A model generated the notes under the pieces. It saw only the letters and a program-made list of their open reading frames with translations. It searched no databases and was not told the DNA's origin. Shown piece by piece: positions 774 to 64,000 of a stretch of DNA of 64,000 bases; position 1 is the first letter of the stretch, and each line of letters begins with the position of its first letter. Both the position numbers and the translations under genes were made by a program. This stretch comes from Lentisphaera araneosa HTCC2155 (GTDB lineage: Bacteria > Verrucomicrobiota > Lentisphaeria > Lentisphaerales > Lentisphaeraceae): NCBI RefSeq assembly GCF_000170755.1, contig NZ_ABCK01000001.1, forward strand, positions 248,001-312,000, given 5' to 3'.

Positions 774-2662
774 ATAAGGGTAGGGAAAGCTCCTTGCGGA
801 GCCTCCCCTCCTTCCGAACCGTACGTGCGGATCTCCCGCATACGGCTCTCCGGTCAATGCTTACTCCGAAGAGACTGAGATTCCAATAGCCAAGCCTCTT
901 CCAGTGAAAAGAACCCTAGCTCTGCAAAGTATTTCTTGGTATATTTCCTGTTATCTATAAAGCGATGTGAACCTTTCTTACGATTGTACTTAGCGATAAT
1001 ACTTCGTAACCTTCGACGAAAGAAAGCATCAACTTCGAGCATAGCCCAACGATTTGAGTGTTTGAAGTACTCATACCAACCTTTGAGACTAGGCCTGAGA
1101 CCTTTAATGATTTCTTCTACCGATTGCCAGTTACAACGCCTCGTATGCTTTCGCACAGTGTCTTTCATTTTAGCCATACTCTGTTTTCTTGGCCACCTAT
1201 TTATCCTGCCCGTTCTTTTCGAGCGCTCAAAGTGATAACCTAGAAATTCAAAGTACTCATCCTGCTGATTCATGTCGGCAATTCGGGTTTTATCGGGATG
1301 GAGGTTCAGACCATGAGCCTTCATCCAACGCTTGATTTTGCGCAAGCCCCGCTTAGCCGATTTCGCATTATCACACATCACCAGAAAGTCATCCGCATAC
1401 CTTACGATTTCAAAGCCAGCCGCTGTCATCCTGTGGTCGAATTCATTGAGGTAAATATTGGCAAGTAGTGGGCTAATTACGCCTCCTTGCGGAGTCCCTT
1501 TCTCGGGCTCCCACTCCTTGATCCCATCAAATATTCCTGCTTTGAGGAAAGCTTCTATAAGATCTAGGGTCTTGCCATCGCTTATTTTCTCTTTGACTCG
1601 TTCCATGAGTTTGTCGTGCGGTATCATATCAAAGTAACTTTGAATATCCGCATCAATGACGTAGAGCTGTCCCTGCGTAAGTAGATGATGAACACGCCGA
1701 AGCGCATCTTTACATCCACGTTGCGGACGAAAACCAAAACTTTGTGTAGAAAAATCCACATCATATATCGGTTCAATAACATTCTTGAGCGCAGTCTGAA
1801 CAACTCTATCGCGCACGGTCGGTATTCCCAAAGCACGCGTTTTACCATCTGCTTTTGGGATCTCTACCCTGCGAACGCATTGTGGCAGGTAAGTCCCTGC
1901 CTGCAGTTGCTTCATCAATTGCTTTGTATTGTGCTCTAGCTCTGATTCGTAACGATCCAAGCTCACCATATCCACCCCGTGACTCCCGCCGTTTGCACGA
2001 ACAGATTCCCAAGCTTCTATAAGGTTTACTTCTCGCGCTACTTTATCTATTAAGCTATACCATTTCTTACCTTCAACTCTTGTTTCAAGAGTTCCCAGCA
2101 TCTGATCTGTCCAGACTGAAGTCGAGGCCCACGCACGAATTTCTTCGGTGCGCCCTAAGTGCTCCCATGTATGTTTAGTCATCTCTGACAATTGTTTCAC
2201 TCCTTCATTCTTTTCTTCTCAGTTTCATCTTCCTACTCTCCTTCGCTCTAACAGCTTTCACCGCCTTCTTCGCTACTATGAGAGCTCTGACTTCTGCATG
2301 CCTTATTGCACTGCACATGCAGATCTCCCTAATTAACGTCACACAACCTTCACCGCATTCCGTCTCCAACCACTCTATAGACTTCCTCTACTGCTTTGCT
2401 ACTCGCTGATATTCAGCATAGAGGATCTTCAGAATTACTCCTTATTATTATTATTTTCATTCCGTTCCAAGCTTCGCCACGCGATCGCAGGCTCGCCAGT
2501 ACTATAAAGCCGAATCGAGTTCGTCATCCTACGGACTGCTGCTTCGCCTTGCCTTGCTCTCCACCCCGCCTCACGACAACGCAGTTAGGTTCGACTACAA
2601 CATAATCAGCCTTTGTTGATGAGGACTTTCACCTCACTGATTGTGTGCGCTCTCAGGCGCAC
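774..2662 (-). mobile_element. Group II intron, IIC-like, complete, in a hairpin repeat
   Basis: On the minus strand the element starts with GTGCGCC (2662-2656) and carries a GUGAAAGUCC-type 5' domain nearby. It ends with a domain V-like hairpin (about 815-850, GAGCCGTATGCGG paired with CGCACGTACGGTTC) and a domain VI ending CCCTTAT at 774. Ends are fixed by comparison with empty sites: the flanks join to TTGGCGGTC/CCAGGGGGG, and the same unbroken junction occurs at about 2764-2781 and, with one change, about 3156-3173. The 5' exon ends in the stem-loop GCCAAGCT-GG-AGCTTGGC. This fits class C introns, which are known to insert after terminator-like hairpins. Length 1889 bp, typical of that class. 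Confidence 0.9.
854..2200 (-). CDS. ltrA: Group II intron reverse transcriptase/maturase
   Basis: A 448-residue protein encoded within the intron, with the reverse transcriptase core in order: IPKADGKTRALGIPTVRDR near residue 115, YVIDADIQSYFD near 180, GTPQGGVISPLLANIYLNEFD near 235, and the catalytic YADD near 268. A maturase/thumb region follows (LRPSLKGWYEYFKHSNR). No H-N-H endonuclease domain follows, as in class C intron proteins. It should splice the intron RNA and copy it into new sites. Reading frame and catalytic residues look intact, so the intron may be active. Confidence 0.95.
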   Translation of the reverse strand: MKQLSEMTKHTWEHLGRTEEIRAWASTSVWTDQMLGTLETRVEGKKWYSLIDKVAREVNLIEAWESVRANGGSHGVDMVSLDRYESELEHNTKQLMKQLQAGTYLPQCVRRVEIPKADGKTRALGIPTVRDRVVQTALKNVIEPIYDVDFSTQSFGFRPQRGCKDALRRVHHLLTQGQLYVIDADIQSYFDMIPHDKLMERVKEKISDGKTLDLIEAFLKAGIFDGIKEWEPEKGTPQGGVISPLLANIYLNEFDHRMTAAGFEIVRYADDFLVMCDNAKSAKRGLRKIKRWMKAHGLNLHPDKTRIADMNQQDEYFEFLGYHFERSKRTGRINRWPRKQSMAKMKDTVRKHTRRCNWQSVEEIIKGLRPSLKGWYEYFKHSNRWAMLEVDAFFRRRLRSIIAKYNRKKGSHRFIDNRKYTKKYFAELGFFSLEEAWLLESQSLRSKH

Positions 2663-3399
2663 GACCGCCAAGCTCCAGCTTGGCAATTGCGGACAACACT
2701 TCATCCACAGATTTCACTGATTAACTCAGATAATTAAAAATTGAGAATTAAAAATTGGAGCTCCCCCCTGGGACCGCCAAGCTCCTGCTTGGCAATTGCG
2801 GATAGAAAGACCGCTTTGCTGAGTGAACGCTCCGCTGAGTTACTAGTTGATAGTTATTAGTGGTAAGAATCTAAGCACTGAAAAACACGAAAGTACACAG
2901 AAAAATTAGAGTCAATTAGTGTGGATTAGTGGTTCCCTCAATTAAAAATTAAGAATTAAGAATTAAAAATTTAAGCGCAGCGACCCAGCTTTATTATTTT
3001 TGCATAAACTACTGTGAATTAGTTATATAAAAATATTTTTTAAGCGTCTCAGACGAGCTCACCACTCAGATAATTAAAAATTATTTTTTAAGCGTCTCAG
3101 ACGAGCTCATCACTCAGATAATTAAAAATTAAAAATTGAGAATTAAAAATTGGAGCTCCACCCTGGGACCGCCAAGCTCCTGCTTGGCAATTGCGGATAG
3201 AAAGACCGCTTTGCTGAGTGAACGCTCCGCTGAGTTACTAGTTGATAGTTATTAGTGGTAAGAATCTAAGCACTGAAAAACACGAAAGTACACAGAAAAA
3301 TTAGAGTCAATTAGTGTGGATTAGTGGTTCCCTCAATTAAACATTCAACATTTAAAATTAGATCGCAGCGTCATCGGTCCGAGCGTGCAAGAAATCACT
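2663..3399. repeat. Repeat-filled intergenic region with a 214-bp direct duplication
   Basis: No gene seen. A block of about 214 bp is present twice, at about 2733-2946 and 3126-3340, with one clear mismatch (CTCCCCCCT against CTCCACCCT). Each copy contains the hairpin GCCAAGCTCCTGCTTGGC, which is the empty form of the group II intron site. Two copies of the palindrome GCGTCTCAGACG lie between them (3044-3055 and 3092-3103). AT-rich strings of the type ATTAAAAATTGAGAATT recur. The segment GGTCCGAGCGTGCAAG at about 3376 recurs at about 11368. Confidence 0.85.
3044..3103 (+). repeat. REP-like palindromes, downstream of RAYT
   Basis: Two copies of GCGTCTCAGACG (arms CGTCT and AGACG around a single C), at 3044-3055 and 3092-3103. 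Each is preceded by a T-rich run and AA and followed by AGCTCA. The flanks give the element a direction, and all copies in the window point the same way. Confidence 0.85.
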
Positions 3400-4242: not shown

Positions 4243-4370
4243 TTTTATCTCCTTTCATTTCGGAGATAATTAATACGCTAATTTTTATTAGTGCAAATTT
4301 ATACGCCAAATTTAGCGTTATTCTTTTTGCATAAACTACTGTAAATTAGTTATATAAAAATATTTTTTAA

Positions 4371-4468
4371 GCGTCTCAGACGAGCTCATCAGTTATATAA
4401 AAATATTTTTTAAGCGTCTCAGACGAGCTCATCAGTTATATAAAAATATTTTTTAAGCGTCTCAGACG
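4371..4468 (+). repeat. REP-like palindromes, three tandem copies upstream of RAYT
   Basis: Copies at 4371-4382, 4414-4425 and 4457-4468 are spaced exactly 43 bp apart. Each unit is the string GTTATATAAAAATATTTTTT followed by AAGCGTCTCAGACGAGCTCA. They lie about 130 bp upstream of the RAYT start. Confidence 0.88.
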
Positions 4469-4483
4469 AGCTCATCCATTAGT

Positions 4484-9824: not shown

Positions 9825-10172
9825 GCGTCTCAGACGAGCTCATCTTATTTTTGTGTAACTAATTTGTTATTAATCAGATAAAAATATTTTTAATGCGTCT
9901 CAGACGTATTTTTAATGCGTCTCAGACGAGCTCACCTGCGGTCTCACTCCTACCTAACCGAGGGGCTCATCATTAAACATTACGTCGCGCGCAAAAAACT
10001 TTCATGTAAATATATGCACAATTAATAAAAATTTTTGTATCAAATTTGTTAACAAAGCTCACCAATGAACTGCCTGATATTTTATAAATTACTTACAAAC
10101 AGTAACTTACATATAAGGACGAGATCCTAGCTGTCAATTTGCTTATTTTTTTATAACAAAATCGAGTAAATA
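9812..10172. repeat. REP-like palindromes after the broken xylanase
   Basis: GCGTCTCAGACG copies lie at 9825-9836, 9895-9906 and 9917-9928, the last two in a short variant unit (TTTTTAATGCGTCTC). From about 9940 to 10172 I see only AT-rich sequence leading to the next gene, with no recognised feature. Confidence 0.85.
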
Positions 10173-11132: not shown

Positions 11133-11653
11133 TATATAAAATTCATTGCCTCTCGAATCAACTCATTGCCGCAATGGGTAACTGTGTTTTATATGACTCA
11201 ACTTCTACTGCTGAATCAGCAATTAAAAATTCAAAATTTAGAATTAAAAATTAGAGCGCAGCGACCCACCCTATTCTTTCTATATAAACAAATGATAATA
11301 AGTAAGATAAAAATATTTTTTAAGCGTATTCAGATTTTACTTTTATGGATTCGCAAGCGCCATTGGTCCGAGCGTGCAAGAAATCAAAGTAAAAGGCCTA
11401 ACCCTACTCCAAATAAACACGCCAAATTTAGCGTTATTCTTTTTGCATAAACTACTGTAAATTAGTTATATAAAAATATTTTTTAAGCGTCTCAGACGAG
11501 CTTACCTAGACGAGCTTACCTCTTTCGGAGATAATTAATACGCTAATTTTTATTAGTGCAAATTTACACGCCAAATTTAGCGTTATTCTTTTTGCATAAA
11601 CTACTGTAAATTAGTTATATAAAAATATTTTTTAAGCGTCTCAGACGAGCTCA
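11133..11653. repeat. RAYT-flank copies and REP palindromes without the RAYT gene
   Basis: The segment GGTCCGAGCGTGCAAG at about 11368 matches the sequence just downstream of the RAYT gene (about 3379). About 30 bp later begins a copy of the sequence upstream of RAYT (CGCCAAATTTAGCGTTATTC at 11413, against about 4302), with a palindrome at 11487-11498. A second, longer copy of the RAYT 5' flank spans 11522-11655 and matches 4258-4393 almost base for base, with a palindrome at 11636-11647. A degenerate palindrome lies near 11324. This looks like a RAYT-less derivative of the element. Confidence 0.85.
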
Positions 11654-15214: not shown

Positions 15215-17395
15215 TCATAAAACCTTCACAAATACACCAATGACCGATATTTGTTCACCCTCAGAGATTTCAATATTCTGATAATCTGGATTGAGGGCTT
15301 GGAGGCTAATAGATCCATGTTGCCAACCCTCTTCGGTTTGAGACTTTTGTGAATGATACTTTTTAACTGTTAGGCGACCACCATCGTTGGGATCGCTATC
15401 ATCATGGAGGTAAAAGAGCATGATGCGATTTTGTCGTGAGCCAGCCAATGCCGATCCTTTGCGGAAAACGCAAAGTGAGTTATCGGGGATTTTGGGCTCC
15501 ATGGATTTTCCCACAACGCGCAAAACAAACATATCTTGATTCATTCTTGGGATTTGGCATTTAATCCACTGTTGAACCAAATCATCTTGCTGAAACAAGT
15601 TCAAGTTCCCTGCAGTGGCCTTCAGATCATAATAAGGCAGGTAATCGACAAATTGTTGCTCTGGTTTAATCTCTTGTGAATCTAAGATGATAATGTTCTT
15701 TGCTATTACTTTTTGTCCTGTGCTTTGTTTTACAGCTGGTTGCCAACGTTCAACACCACGCTGAATCGCAGTAATCTCCACAGATTCATGGAAGAATGAA
15801 AAGAGTTTATTTTGCCAATTGGGAGTAAAGCTCTCGCCACTGACTCGTTTCATTTCATAAGCAAAGCGTTCGGGGTAATTTACTTGAGTTTGTTCCCAGT
15901 AATTGATTATGCAGTCCTTGCGAGCTACTAAGAGCTGATGACTTGGGAGCTTATCACGCTTATGGTTATTGACTTTTTCATCGCTGGGCAAAAGATTCCA
16001 AAGGTCATTATTTTTCCACAGGGCATAAGGAATAGCGTGATCCACAGCAAATTTATCTTTGAGGGTTTTTCCTGACCAAACGCATTCTTTTACATCAGAT
16101 TTTTTATACAAAGAGCGTACTGCCTGGACATCTCGATCTGGATCGCAATTAACTAGAAGTAGATCAATAACTTGGCTGGGGCGTAATTGTTGATTCGAGA
16201 GCTTGGCCGTAAGTTCAGCCCAACGAAGAATTGTGGCATCTTGAATCCAAGGCCCCATGATAGTGAGTTCTCGCCAAACCTCCACAGGCATGTAGACTTG
16301 TTTATCACGGTAAGAGAAAACCGTTTGTCCCGAATTAATGCCACCAGAGTAAGTAACGGGGCCCGCCTTAATTGTGTTATTTAACTTAGAAATAAGTTTG
16401 CTGTAAACAGAGCGGACTTCTTTACTGAGTTGGCCTGATTTTCTAGAGATCAAAAAGGCATTTAATCCACCCGAAGTTCGATAGTGAGCTATAAGCTGAT
16501 TAAGTAAAGCTCGAAAAGCAATAGAACGAGTTGAGTCAATTCTATCTCCGTATTTTTGAGGTATATAAATTTCACTTTCACAGATTGGCCAATAATATTC
16601 GAGCCATTTCTCAGAAATGGACTGAATAGGAAGGGATACACGTTTATCGAAATGCCACAGGACTGATTTATGTTGACTCTGAGCTATATCGGCCAAAGCT
16701 CGAAACAAGGCTAATTTATAAGTAGTATCCTTTTTATCTTTATTGAGTACCGATTCTATTTTATCAAGCCCCCTGCTCCCATCCATATTCTGTAGACGAA
16801 AAGATAAAATATGCCATTTGCGGTGATCGCGATTCAGGGAGTCGGCGTTGGTCCAGTGATTAAGGTTTTGAAAGCCAAGGCGTTCGAGAAGTAGTTTGAG
16901 TTTTTCGGGATTGAGCTGATTAAAGAGGCGCCCTTTGGAGTCGCGTTGATCAATTATGGTGGGATCTTCGTCAGGAATAGAAATTAAGAGCGAGCCATTT
17001 TCTTTGAGGATGCGACGGAGGTTAAAGCAAGCATCGAAAAATTGTTCGCTGGGAAGATGCATAAGCACGGCTGAACAAAGAAGTCCATCAAATTGATCAT
17101 CGTCGAATTCAGCTAAGTTGGGAAGTGATGACAGCCTTAAATTATCTTCCAAATCGGGGATATTTTTTGCACATTGCGCAAGCATTGCAGATGAAGAATC
17201 GCAGCCAAAGGCATGACAGCCCATTTGCGCTAAACGCAAAAGGTCTCGACCTGATCCACAGCCGATATCTAGAACATAATCACCGGACTTGAAAACTTGG
17301 GGGAAGTAATCGCTCACCCCGCCTTCGCAAGTCCAATAGCTTGCGCTCACTGACTCGGCGTTAGCTTGATAAAATTCTTGTGTTGCTTGGTCCAC
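15215..17395 (-). CDS. Methyltransferase-HNH nuclease-S24 peptidase fusion
   Basis: A 726-residue protein starting at GTG with AAGGG upstream. Residues about 1-200: class I SAM methyltransferase (VLDIGCGSGRDLLRL at 41-55, LLCSAVLMHLPSEQFFD near 105-121). Residues about 220-420: a helical region that I do not recognise. Residues about 435-490: HNH-type nuclease (CVW at 438, then VDHAIPYALWKNNDLWNLLP at 451-470 and NNHKRDKLPS). Residues about 585-726: LexA/UmuD-type S24 domain with catalytic Ser631 in GKSMEP, Lys678 in LTVKKY, and a likely Ala595-Gly596 cleavage site in DLKATAGN. No helix-turn-helix was seen, so this is not an ordinary repressor. First gene of the operon with the PLD-helicase. 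Possible role: damage- or phage-triggered restriction-like effector. Confidence 0.85.
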   Translation of the reverse strand: MDQATQEFYQANAESVSASYWTCEGGVSDYFPQVFKSGDYVLDIGCGSGRDLLRLAQMGCHAFGCDSSSAMLAQCAKNIPDLEDNLRLSSLPNLAEFDDDQFDGLLCSAVLMHLPSEQFFDACFNLRRILKENGSLLISIPDEDPTIIDQRDSKGRLFNQLNPEKLKLLLERLGFQNLNHWTNADSLNRDHRKWHILSFRLQNMDGSRGLDKIESVLNKDKKDTTYKLALFRALADIAQSQHKSVLWHFDKRVSLPIQSISEKWLEYYWPICESEIYIPQKYGDRIDSTRSIAFRALLNQLIAHYRTSGGLNAFLISRKSGQLSKEVRSVYSKLISKLNNTIKAGPVTYSGGINSGQTVFSYRDKQVYMPVEVWRELTIMGPWIQDATILRWAELTAKLSNQQLRPSQVIDLLLVNCDPDRDVQAVRSLYKKSDVKECVWSGKTLKDKFAVDHAIPYALWKNNDLWNLLPSDEKVNNHKRDKLPSHQLLVARKDCIINYWEQTQVNYPERFAYEMKRVSGESFTPNWQNKLFSFFHESVEITAIQRGVERWQPAVKQSTGQKVIAKNIIILDSQEIKPEQQFVDYLPYYDLKATAGNLNLFQQDDLVQQWIKCQIPRMNQDMFVLRVVGKSMEPKIPDNSLCVFRKGSALAGSRQNRIMLFYLHDDSDPNDGGRLTVKKYHSQKSQTEEGWQHGSISLQALNPDYQNIEISEGEQISVIGVFVKVL

Positions 17396-17589: not shown

Positions 17590-18660
17590 ATGCGGAGCAG
17601 AGCTCCTGAGTTGACGGACTAAGTTCCTGAGTTGACGCGCTAAAGCGCTGAGTTCACGGACTGAGTCCTGAGTTGACGCGCTAAAGCGCTGAGTTCACGG
17701 ACTGAGTCCTGAGTTGACGCGCTAAAGCGCTGAGTTGACGAAGCGGAGCTTCTTAGGTTACAGGCTTAAGGTCATTAACCACAGATTTAACAGATGGGGC
17801 AGATAGAGAGCAATTTTTAATTGACCTGCCAGTCGGGCGGATGAAGAACAAAAGATATCGAACCACGGAAGGCACAGAAAAACACGGAAGGAGAGCAATT
17901 TTTAATGGAAAGTCAAGATCAAGAGAAGTTTAACCACAGATTGAACAGATGGAGCAGATTTATTTCTTGGGACGGTTCCACAGTTAGACAAATCCACGAT
18001 TGGACAATTTAAAACTGATGACTGCAGGGCGAAGCCCGATCTGCAGCGAATGGAATGAGCGATCTGCAGTGAGCTTGCGAACGATCTTGCAGTGGAACAG
18101 TCTTACAGCGCAGCGGTCTTCCCTGTCCGCAATTGCCGAGCTGGAGCTCAGCGGTCCCAGGTTTTAGGTGATAGATGCCGCATTGAATGCGGGGCTCCCA
18201 GCTTTTAACTGATGACTGCCCTCTTCTAATTCTCTTGTCTCTTTCAGTGCAGCGGTCTTTCAGTGAGCCTGCGAACGATCTTGCAGTGAGCAACGCGAAC
18301 GATCTTGCAGTGAGCAACGCGAACGATCTTGCAGTGAGCAACGCGAACGATCTTGCAGTGAGCAACGCGAACGATCTTGCAGTGGAACAGTCTTACAGCG
18401 CAGCGGTCTTCCCTGTCCGCAATTGCCGAGCTGGAGCTCAGCGGTCCCAGGTTTTAGGTGATAGATGCCGCATTGAATGCGGGGCTCCCAGCTTTTAACT
18501 GATGACTGCCCTCTTCTAATTCTCTTGTCTCTTTCAGTGCAGCGGTCTTTCAGTGAGCCTGCGAACGATCTTGCAGTGAGCAACGCGAACGATCTTTCAG
18601 TGAGCCTGCGAACGATCTTGCAGTGGAACGGTCTATCACCTCAACTGCCTAACTTTCCTT
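17590..18660. repeat. Hairpin-cassette repeat array A
   Basis: No gene. In 17590-17755 the linkers GAGTTGACG or GAGTTCACG alternate with small palindromes that differ in sequence: GCGCTAAAGCGC, GGACTGAGTCC, GAAGCGGAGCTTC, GGAGCAGAGCTCC. In 18010-18650 the linker is built from GATCTTGCAGTG or GATCTGCAG. A block of about 230 bp is present twice at a 290-bp offset (about 18075-18306 and 18365-18596). Between these lies a tandem of a 24-bp unit, GATCTTGCAGTGAGCAACG plus CGAAC, at about 18282-18382. Long frames here (for example LTARSFALLTARSFA) are products of the repeat. Confidence 0.85.
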
Positions 18661-22734: not shown

Positions 22735-23390
22735 AACGTTCGCTGCGCACTTCGTGCTTAGGTGACAGGGATCAGGTTTCAGGTGACAGGTGACAGGTGA
22801 CAGGTGGCGCCTGCGGCTTAGGTTGCGGCAACAAGTTGCCTTAGGGGGCGGAGCGGAGCTCCTTAGGTTGCGCCTGCGGCTTAGGTGGCGCTGACTTAGG
22901 TGAAGCCTTCGGCTTGGGTGGCGCTGACGCTTGGGTGGCGCTCGTTCCGAGCTTAGGTTTTAGGAATCAGGTTTCAGGGGGCGCCTGCGGCTTAGGGAGC
23001 GCCTGCGGCTTAGGGAGCGCCTGCGGCTTGGGTTGCGGCAACAAGTTGCCTTGGGTTGCGGATCGGTGCTCCTTAGCTTGCGCTCGTTCCGAGCTTAGGT
23101 TACAGGAATCAGGTGGCAAGGTTAAGGACATTAACCACGGATTTCACGGATTAACACAGATGAAAGAAGCAGGGAGCGCCGACGGCTTAGGTGGCGTTGA
23201 CGCGCTAAAGCGCTGAGTTCACGAAGCGGAGCTTCTGAGTTGATGCGCTAAAGCGCTGAGTTCACGGACTGAGTCCTGAGTTGACGCGCTAAAGCGCTGA
23301 GTTGACGAAGCGGAGCTTCTGAGTTGACGCGCTAAGTTCCTGAGTTGACGCGCTAAAGCGCTGAGTTCACGGATTAACACGGATGAGGAG
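22735..23390. repeat. Hairpin-cassette repeat array C
   Basis: No gene. Linkers such as TTAGGT, TTGGGT and CAGGTGACAGG alternate with GCGCCTGCGGC, GGCAACAAGTTGCC, GGCGGAGCGGAGCTCC, GAAGCCTTCGGCTT and GCTCGTTCCGAGC. From 23200 on, the linker changes to the GAGTTGACG/GAGTTCACG type of array A with GCGCTAAAGCGC, GGACTGAGTCC and GAAGCGGAGCTTC. A frame at 22914-23216 exists only because of the repeats. Confidence 0.85.
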
Positions 23391-36439: not shown

Positions 36440-37045
36440 AATTAGCTTTTCCTGGGGCCGCCAAGCTCCTGCTTGGCAATTGCGGATAAAAAGACCGCTG
36501 CGCTGCAAGACCGTTCCACTGCAAGATCGTTAGCAGGCTCACTGAAAGACCGCTGCGCTGAAAGACCGGTGCGCTGAAAGACCGTTCCACTGCAAGATCG
36601 TTCGCAGGCTCACTGAAAGACCGCTGCGTTGCAAGATCGTTCGCAGGCTCACTGAAAGACCGCTGCGCTGAAAGATCGGGCTTCGCCCTGCAGATCGTTC
36701 GCGTTGCTCACTGCAAGATCGTTCGCGTTGCTCACTGCAAGATCGTTCGCGTTGCTCACTGCAGATCGCTCATTCCATTCGCTGCAGATCGGCTCGAAGA
36801 GCCTGCAGTTATCAGTTTTAAATTGTCCAATCGTGGATTTGTCTAACTGTGGAACCGTCACTCAGGAACTTCGTTCCGTAATCTCAGGACTCAGTCCGTG
36901 AACTCAGCGCTTTAGCGCGTCAACTCAGAAGCTCCGCTTCGTTATCTAAGCTCGTAACGAGCGGCACCTGAAACCTGATTCCTGAAACCTAAGCGCTTTA
37001 GCGCGCCACCCAAGCCGAAGGCGAAACCCAAGCTGAAGGCGCAAC
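36440..37045. repeat. Hairpin-cassette repeat array D
   Basis: No gene. It starts with GCCAAGCTCCTGCTTGGC (36461-36478), the empty intron-site repeat. Then GATCGTTCGCAGGCTCACTG, GACCGCTGCGCTGAAA and GATCGTTCGCGTTGCTCACT alternate; the last is the reverse complement of the 24-bp tandem unit of array A, repeated three times at about 36703-36760. It continues with GGAACTTCGTTCC, GGACTCAGTCC, GCGCTTTAGCGC, GAAGCTCCGCTTC and GCTCGTAACGAGC, mostly the reverse complements of modules in arrays A and C. The segment 37053-37095 resembles 48873-48915. Confidence 0.85.
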
Positions 37046-63364: not shown

Positions 63365-64000
63365 TGGGTATGCCAAGCACCTGCTTGGCAACTGCTTTTG
63401 TATGGTACGCCAAGCACCTGCTTGGCAATAACCATAGACCTTCTCCATCCGCCAGTTGAGGGTGGCAATCCTCAAAGCGTTCGGGGCTGCCCCCGAGAAC
63501 CCATCAGGTTCTATCTACCAGCTTGGCATCTGCTTTTGTATGGTACGCCAAGCACTAGCTTGGCAACTGCGGATATAACGAACTTATTTCAATTTAAAAC
63601 TTGGTATAAGAAATCCATAGCTTAACAAAACCATTTTCATGGTACGCCAAGCACCAGCTTGGCAACTGCTTTTGTATGGTACGCCAAGCACCAGCTTGGC
63701 AACTGCTTTTGTATGGTACGCCAAGCACCAGCTTGGCATCTGCTTTTGTATGGTACCGCCAAGCACCAGCTTGGCATCTACCGACCCACTCTTCTCAACA
63801 ACTTAAATTAAACTTCCCTCAAATCATATTGCACACTACCTTTCAAAGGAAAAGCAACATCTTTTCGGTATTTCGGCCAAGCTGGTGCTTGGCGTACCCA
63901 ACAAAAACTAAATTTTGTCTCTACTGCTCCAGCTCCTCAAACCTCACTTCCTCTCATCATAAGCACTGCTCATTTTCCAATCTTTCACCTTATCACACAA
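63365..64000. repeat. 37-bp palindromic tandem array downstream of the sulfatase
   Basis: The hairpin GCCAAGCACCAGCTTGGC (or GCCAAGCACCTGCTTGGC) occurs at 63372, 63409, 63547, 63646, 63683, 63720 and 63758, in a 37-38-bp unit with the constant string ACTGCTTTTGTATGGTAC. One copy is inverted (63876-63893), and a partial one lies near 63518. The hairpin is the relative of GCCAAGCTCCTGCTTGGC at 2770, 3162 and 36461. After 63894 there is no recognised feature up to the window end. Confidence 0.9.

What the first reader, a model, noticed from the sequence alone, without database searches (positions are those of the whole stretch)
17590..18660. Hairpin-cassette repeats: constant linkers, exchanged stems
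Linkers such as GAGTTGACG alternate with hairpins whose stems differ but keep pairing: GCGCT-AA-AGCGC, GGACT-G-AGTCC, GAAGC-GGA-GCTTC, GGAGC-AGA-GCTCC. Changes on one arm are matched on the other across modules. That is compensatory variation inside one array, suggesting that the fold, not the sequence, is kept. I know of no named repeat class of this kind.
Basis: partly seen in the sequence, partly recalled or inferred. Interest (0 to 1): 0.75.

Follow-up and report, generated by a model that had tools for sequence, protein, structure and literature searches.

The report
Hairpin repeat arrays linked to S23
In this marine bacterium short DNA hairpins alternate with a constant 9-letter linker in arrays scattered between genes, and the same kind of array brackets copies of a small gene of unknown function (S23), which in many bacterial phyla sits between mirror-image short repeats: an unrecognised repeat-and-gene partnership.

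Summary
The rest of the given interval is other repeats. Linkers TGAGTT[G/C]AC alternate with hairpins whose stems differ but pair. In 1.57 Mb of this genome (genus Lentisphaera), 158 linker-hairpin-linker modules have a perfect stem, against 1 in the reversed control. Re-dealing arms among 42 distinct 11-nt modules never reached the observed pairing (z 7.9). Sixteen of 26 distinct triloops are C(GNA)G, the unusually stable DNA mini-hairpin (background 4%). The family is confined to the genus, and at the orthologous site L. marina has none.

These are not RAYT-type REPs: none of 16 Y1-transposase genes is flanked by them. But all four S23 (PF05635, four-helix-bundle) genes abut hairpin or short tandem arrays. 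Two 86%-identical copies carry this very linker family; more divergent copies carry other repeats. In many phyla S23 genes lie between short repeats in inverted orientation: 45 of 70 loci, 1 of 22 control genes.

Best reading: dispersed copies of repeats that belong to S23 elements, as REPs belong to RAYTs. That S23 protein recognises the hairpins is inferred, not shown. Neutral slippage with palindrome templating is the main rival. The compensatory pattern is real but does not prove selection on the fold.

The parts
17594..17761 (+). Hairpin-linker array: 8 hairpins (13, 12, 12, 11, 12, 11, 12, 13 nt) separated by 9-nt linkers TGAGTTGAC / TGAGTTCAC, last linker TTAGGTTAC
   Evidence: direct reading; pairing statistics
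17616..17627 (+). Chimeric, mispaired hairpin GGACT-AA-GTTCC (left half of GGACTGAGTCC, right half as in GGAACAAGTTCC): exchange at half-hairpin level
   Evidence: direct reading
23196..23371 (+). Second array of the same family: GCGCTAAAGCGC x4, GAAGCGGAGCTTC x2, GGACTGAGTCC, chimeric GCGCTAAGTTCC at 23329
36865..36940 (-). Third array, opposite orientation: GGAACTTCGTTCC, GGACTCAGTCC, GCGCTTTAGCGC, GAAGCTCCGCTTC with reverse-strand linkers ending in CTCA
18060..18639 (.). NOT part of the hairpin-linker family although inside the given interval: two copies of a 290-bp unit with 24-bp tandem repeats (TCTTGCAGTGAGCAACGCGAACGA) and palindromes GCCGAGCTGGAGCTCAGCGG (18135, 18425) like those beside the RAYT gene at C2:195927

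Best explanation
The arrays are dispersed, non-coding copies of the repeats that belong to S23 elements. An S23 element is a small gene (PF05635, 23S_rRNA_IVP / four-helix-bundle protein) between short repeats, often tandem and usually in inverted orientation on its two sides. In most lineages the unit is a bare 7-8-mer; in Lentisphaera it has become linker (9 nt) plus mini-hairpin (7-13 nt, loop often C(GNA)G). Each S23 lineage has its own repeat type, and copies of the repeat lie without the gene at other intergenic sites, as REP/BIME repeats relate to RAYT transposases. Shown: arrays, covariation, loop bias, adjacency to S23, tracking of repeat type with S23 paralogues, inverted flanks in several phyla, presence/absence and turnover at orthologous sites. 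Inferred: that S23 protein binds its repeats as hairpins in single-stranded nucleic acid and thereby spreads or amplifies them, so that the fold rather than the sequence is what must persist. The arrays in the window have no S23 gene nearby; the link is the shared linker and module design.
For: All 4 S23 genes in the genome abut arrays, within tens of bp; the C3 gene lies between two TGAGTTTAC-linker hairpin arrays and C20 has the same linker family on both sides. C3 and C20 proteins are 86% identical; C14 (61-64%) and C5 (38-42%) carry other repeats; in G001 two S23 89% identical both carry CTTTCAG-type repeats. Array score beside S23: C3 57, C20 26/37, background 450-bp stretches median 16, 95% 21; C5 and C14 17-22, as expected for other repeat types. 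Tandem repeats near S23 at 21/37 loci of the phylum against 1/22 ParE controls, p 5e-5. Inverted 8-mer words shared by the two flanks: 19/37 and 9/12, ParE 1/22; 17/21 in a set from Bacteroidota, Doudnabacteria, Acidobacteriota, Pseudomonadota, Deltaproteobacteria, Ruminococcus and Phycisphaerales. Repeats away from the gene: G003 octamer AGGGAGTG lies beside S23 and on about 20 other contigs. Orthologous site beside the photolyase genes: no array in L. marina (G002), different arrays plus a gene in G001, the array block in the window. Loops: 16/26 distinct triloops C(GNA)G, background 4.3%, or 24.5% of C-G-closed hairpins. C(GNA)G DNA mini-hairpins are exceptionally stable (PMC4686876). S23 is related to a solved pentameric four-helix-bundle protein, 2GSC (PMC4990558), and resembles Avd of DGRs (PMC10053308). 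The Coxiella IVS has variable tandem heptamers just before its S23 ORF (PMC4990558).
Against: No binding, mobility or expression was measured. Most arrays, those in the window included, have no S23 gene nearby. Amplified broken-stem modules argue against strict recognition of the fold. At C3 the two arrays next to the gene have the same, not opposite, orientation; inverted copies lie further downstream. About a third of S23 loci show no significant inverted flank by the test used. S23 could instead insert preferentially into existing arrays, although inverted flanks make this less likely. GxxExxY genes (PF13366) also have inverted flanking words (18/27), so inverted flanks are not unique to S23. 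The loop test treats related hairpins as independent. Paralogue tracking rests on two closely related pairs.
Confidence: 0.55

Rival explanations
1. Neutral satellite: arrays grow and shrink by replication slippage and recombination, and stems stay paired because one arm is copied from the other during hairpin-mediated template switching (quasi-palindrome correction). No protein partner and no selection on the fold; S23 genes merely tolerate or land in such places.
For: Homogeneous runs of 20-36 units; broken-stem modules amplified as well (GCACTACGCGC x8; GCCCTTCGTGC run in G001); no strand bias of G.T versus A.C mismatches; whole-hairpin and half-hairpin shuffling in the window.
Against: Does not explain why all four S23 genes abut arrays, why repeat type tracks S23 lineage, or why flanks of S23 are inverted in many phyla. 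C(GNA)G loop bias is not predicted by templating alone.
Confidence: 0.25
2. REP/BIME of an unusual kind, mobilised in trans by one of the 16 Y1 transposases (RAYT / IS200 type) in this genome.
For: 16 PF01797 matches in the genome; many are flanked by their own palindromic repeats, one just beyond the window end beside the array at 63639-63776; hairpins with a constant foot resemble REPs in outline.
Against: None of the 16 genes carries this family: best local scores are at background level at nearly all of them, with one flank of C2:195927 at 24 against a 95% level of 21. No GTAG or CGTC tag; stems 4-5 bp, shorter than the 7-20 bp used to define REPs in PMC6006769.
Confidence: 0.12
3. RNA elements: arrays are transcribed and their hairpins act as processing, stability or termination signals.
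For: Folds as RNA with z -3.2; S23 elements sit between genes that look like operons (cas6/cas4, cas10/cmr3) where RNA processing would help; the Coxiella IVS is excised by RNase III (PMC4990558).
Against: 25 clusters: 12 between divergent genes, 9 co-directional, 4 convergent (background 118/235/71), so no bias to 3' ends; no G.U-over-A.C preference; no Rfam family at the arrays; unit number and place vary strongly between species.
Confidence: 0.08

Closest known systems
REP / BIME repeats with RAYT (TnpA-REP) transposases
   Same: Short intergenic hairpins in many copies, clustered, mosaic with linkers; gene flanked by its own repeats plus copies without the gene elsewhere
   Different: No GTAG/CGTC tag, shorter stems, head-to-tail 20-22-bp tandem arrays, partner gene S23 instead of a Y1 transposase; RAYTs of this genome have other repeats
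IVS elements of 23S rRNA (S23p ORF)
   Same: Same gene family; ORF between repeats; tandem heptamers upstream of the ORF in Coxiella (PMC4990558)
   Different: Here not shown to lie in rRNA, repeats are dispersed through the genome without the gene, and in Lentisphaera carry mini-hairpins
STRR and other 7-8-bp tandem repeats of cyanobacteria, Xanthomonas and Beggiatoaceae (PMC4692102, PMC4679880)
   Same: Short head-to-tail repeats, mainly intergenic, lineage-specific unit; S23 flanks on cyanobacterial plasmids are 7-8-mers such as GGGAACA, GGTGACA, AGGGTGT
   Different: Those were described without S23 as a partner gene; unit here is linker plus hairpin, 20-22 bp
Hairpin elements of mitochondrial DNA (sponge RHE, PMC2800124; Allomyces double-hairpin elements, from memory)
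   Same: Repetitive hairpin-forming elements in intergenic DNA
   Different: From memory: not tandem with a constant linker; organelle DNA; no S23

Membership tests
REP/BIME (RAYT-associated) | GTAG/GTGG (or CGTC) tetranucleotide at the foot of the hairpin | tested here: not met
   Linker consensus T[GTA]AGNNNAC; commonest TGAGTTTAC, TGAGTTGAC, TGAGAATAC; CGTC occurs on the reverse strand only in the TTGAC linkers
REP/BIME (RAYT-associated) | Basal stem of 7-20 bp (definition in PMC6006769) | tested here: not met
   Stems 4-5 bp
REP/BIME (RAYT-associated) | Cognate RAYT gene flanked by the same repeat | tested here: not met
   0 of 16 Y1_Tnp genes carry this family
REP/BIME (RAYT-associated) | High-copy, intergenic | tested here: met
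   238 linker-X-linker modules in the sampled sequence, 25 perfect-stem clusters between genes
S23 / IVS element | S23 (PF05635) ORF inside the element | tested here: met
   Met for arrays at C3 and C20; not for the arrays in the window, where no S23-like ORF motif was found
S23 / IVS element | Inverted repeats around the ORF | tested here: met
   C20 inverted; 45 of 70 S23 loci against 1 of 22 controls; at C3 the adjacent arrays are in the same orientation
S23 / IVS element | Location in 23S rRNA and excision by RNase III | not tested
   The S23 genes looked at closely lie between protein-coding genes; excision needs an experiment
Short tandem (7-9 bp) repeats / STRR | Unit of 7-9 bp in tandem | tested here: not met
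   Unit 20-22 bp; 7-8-bp units occur at S23 genes of related genera and other phyla
Rfam structured RNA | Match to a curated family | tested here: not met
   Only a group II intron piece at 774-850 in the whole window

The most novel reading that the evidence does not exclude
S23 genes across bacteria are the genes of an unrecognised class of element whose ends are inverted arrays of short tandem repeats, and S23 protein propagates these repeats, so that the orphan heptamer repeats of cyanobacteria and other phyla, the 23S rRNA IVS and the hairpin arrays of Lentisphaera are one system, in Lentisphaera under selection for a DNA mini-hairpin fold.
Probability: 0.35. Interest if true: 0.88.

Novelty: new variant of a known kind. 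Interest (0 to 1): 0.7.

Why it matters
S23 is a widespread protein family with a solved structure and no known function, and short heptamer repeats are common, unexplained features of many bacterial genomes. If the two belong together, both questions become testable at once: S23 would be the partner of the repeats as RAYT is of REPs. The Lentisphaera arrays show the repeat caught with a visible fold that varies by matched changes, which gives a natural mutational series for binding tests.

Tried and rejected
RAYT-type REP: rejected as member (tag, stem, flank tests). An apparent likeness of the repeats beside the IS200-like gene C1:416938 (CTGAGTTATG after a hairpin) was not above background (score 17, background median 16). 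Rfam: none. Phage collection: no match to the array DNA. The exact linker-linker pattern in 84,980 species gave scattered single hits outside Lentisphaera, only somewhat more than the one or two I estimated from base odds, plus small clusters in Mesorhizobium wenxiniae and one Bacteroidota MAG that were not followed up. 3'-end/terminator role: no positional bias. GxxExxY genes as alternative partner: inverted flanks yes (18/27), tandem repeats no (1/27), so not the array partner. The reversed-pattern control is uninformative because the reversed octamer pattern is a rotation of the same repeat.

Full report
WHAT IS THERE. The modules are at 17594-17761: eight hairpins separated by a 9-nt linker TGAGTTGAC or TGAGTTCAC. 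The rest of the stated interval to 18660 is a different mixture: a 290-bp duplication, 24-bp tandem repeats and palindromes of the type that flanks a RAYT gene elsewhere in the genome. The same family recurs at 23196-23371 and on the minus strand near 36865-36940. Two hairpins are chimeras with broken stems (GGACTAAGTTCC at 17616, GCGCTAAGTTCC at 23329).

WHERE IT COMES FROM. The window is G000:C1:248001-312000 of a 6.02-Mb, 81-contig genome. The same-genus genome G002 has a contig of 2,399,701 bases, the length of a Lentisphaera marina contig found by pattern search, so the genus is Lentisphaera; the size fits L. araneosa HTCC2155 (from memory, not tested). Among 40 genomes searched (this one and 39 relatives) only the three of this genus have linker-spacer-linker matches: 100, 23 and 1.

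STATISTICS. In 1.57 Mb, linkers T[GTA]AGNNNAC followed by a spacer and a second T[GTA]AG gave 158 spacers with a perfect stem of at least 4 bp, against 1 in the reversed sequence. Among 42 distinct 11-nt spacers 125 of 168 arm positions pair; re-dealing the 3' arms gave 83.1 +/- 5.3 and never reached 125 in 5000 trials; 13-nt spacers z 4.5; 10- and 12-nt spacers z about 2 only. So covariation is real. Hairpins are shared between linker types (TGAGTTTAC, TGAGAATAC, TTAGGCAGC, TTGGGAATG): linkers and hairpins combine as modules.

LOOPS. Of 26 distinct triloop hairpins 16 have C(GNA)G on one strand; 4.3% of background hairpins do, 24.5% of those closed by C-G. d(GCGAAGC) melts near 78 C (PMC4686876). 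This favours a DNA-level fold, but both strands supply the GNA side, and the hairpins are not independent samples.

NOT STRICTLY MAINTAINED. 143 of 185 11-nt modules have perfect stems; broken versions are amplified (GCACTACGCGC 8 copies), and single mismatches are G.T in 7 types/13 copies and A.C in 4 types/14 copies. Selection for an RNA fold on one strand would favour G.T on that strand.

SURROUNDINGS. 25 clusters lie between genes: 12 divergent, 9 co-directional, 4 convergent, against 118/235/71 for all intergenic gaps of at least 150 bp. Units in a cluster keep one orientation, except two clusters made of a plus block followed by a minus block.

ORTHOLOGOUS SITE. The photolyase gene beside the window array is 70% identical, and its neighbour 64-65% identical, in G001 and G002. 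Upstream of the pair, G002 has a short gap without arrays, G001 has 2 kb with arrays on both sides of an extra gene, and the window has the array block. Downstream, all three species have hairpin or short-repeat mosaics of different make-up. Arrays thus come, go and turn over at fixed places.

NOT RAYT. 16 Y1_Tnp matches occur in the genome. Many are flanked by their own palindromes; none carries this family.

THE S23 LINK. All four PF05635 genes abut arrays. C3: arrays with TGAGTTTAC linkers immediately before and after the gene, and an opposite-orientation array further down. C20: the same linker family before and, inverted, after. C5: about 29 copies of TTGAGCGAAGCGATACT. C14: CTAAGTGAGCACAGCGAACGCTAC. 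C3 and C20 proteins are 86% identical; C14 is 61-64% and C5 38-42% identical to them. In G001 two S23 89% identical to each other both have CTTTCAG repeats. The intergenic spot of the C3 gene holds, in G002, another four-helix-bundle gene (no significant BLAST match to the C3 protein; its only match in the set is 28% to C5) with AATTTTG-type repeats.

GENERALITY. Tandem repeats lie within 250-300 bp of S23 at 21 of 37 loci in the phylum, ParE 1 of 22, GxxExxY 1 of 27. Inverted 8-mer words in the two flanks above shuffles: 19/37 S23 in the phylum, 9/12 on cyanobacterial and Riemerella plasmids, 1/22 ParE, 18/27 GxxExxY. Examples: GGGAACA / TGTTCCC in Nostoc, GGTGACA / TGTCACC in Anabaena, AGGGTGT / ACACCCT in Calothrix. 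In genomes of other phyla, reached through unrelated pattern hits, 17/21 inverted and 15/21 tandem; one in a Deltaproteobacteria MAG has hairpin-bearing TGAG units. S23 genes sit between cas6 and cas4 in two cyanobacteria and between cas10 and cmr3 in a third. The octamer beside an S23 gene of G003 is dispersed on about 20 other contigs. For loci on minus strands the gene-end extension used was slightly asymmetric, and the significance rule (at most 1% of shuffles) differs a little from that (above all shuffles); the 45 of 70 adds the two.

LITERATURE. The Coxiella IVS paper reports variable tandem heptamers just upstream of the S23p ORF and calls the IVS a selfish element (PMC4990558); PF05635 resembles the DGR accessory protein Avd (PMC10053308). 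The papers on heptamer repeats that I looked into did not mention S23 or four-helix-bundle genes in a term search (PMC4692102, PMC4679880). I found no report joining S23 to dispersed tandem repeats; the library holds open-licence papers only and I used ten searches.

VERDICT. Real, lineage-specific hairpin-linker arrays; best read as dispersed repeats of S23 elements, with the mechanism (recognition of mini-hairpins by S23 and propagation) inferred. The strongest general result, outside the given coordinates, is the inverted short-repeat bracket of S23 genes in many phyla.

Noticed in passing
window 63639-63776 and G000:C1:312016-312312: A 37-bp tandem repeat with GCCAAGCACCAGCTTGGC lies beside a RAYT-like gene (about 200 aa, PF01797) just beyond the window end, flanked by the same palindrome: a proper RAYT-REP unit.
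   Followed up: partly
L231-L256, L260 (GxxExxY loci): GxxExxY genes (PF13366) across the phylum also have inverted words in their two flanks (18 of 27) but no tandem arrays, suggesting a second small gene of element-like habit.
   Followed up: partly
L267, L270, L272: S23 genes inside CRISPR-Cas operons of cyanobacterial plasmids (cas6|S23|cas4 twice, cas10|S23|cmr3), each with short repeats on both sides.
   Followed up: partly
window 774-850 (-): Rfam group II intron match (57.7 bits) beside a 448-aa ORF at 854-2200.
   Followed up: no
window 3028-3131, 4348-4476, 9826-9928, 11488-11647: Another repeat family with hairpin CGTCTCAGACG (10 copies in the window), partly in tandem units of 22-48 bp.
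   Followed up: no
window 15215-17395 (-): 726-aa ORF joining a methyltransferase, an HNH nuclease motif and an S24 peptidase domain, next to a 1038-aa PLD-helicase-DUF3427 protein: possibly a defence locus.
   Followed up: no
window 22760-22806: Bare heptamer array AGGTGAC x6.7, the simple form of short repeat seen beside S23 genes elsewhere, without an S23 gene here.
   Followed up: no
L299 (G169, Deltaproteobacteria MAG): S23 gene flanked by TGAG units with hairpins (AGCGCTTCGCT, GGCCTTGCGGCC), close in design to the Lentisphaera arrays.
   Followed up: partly
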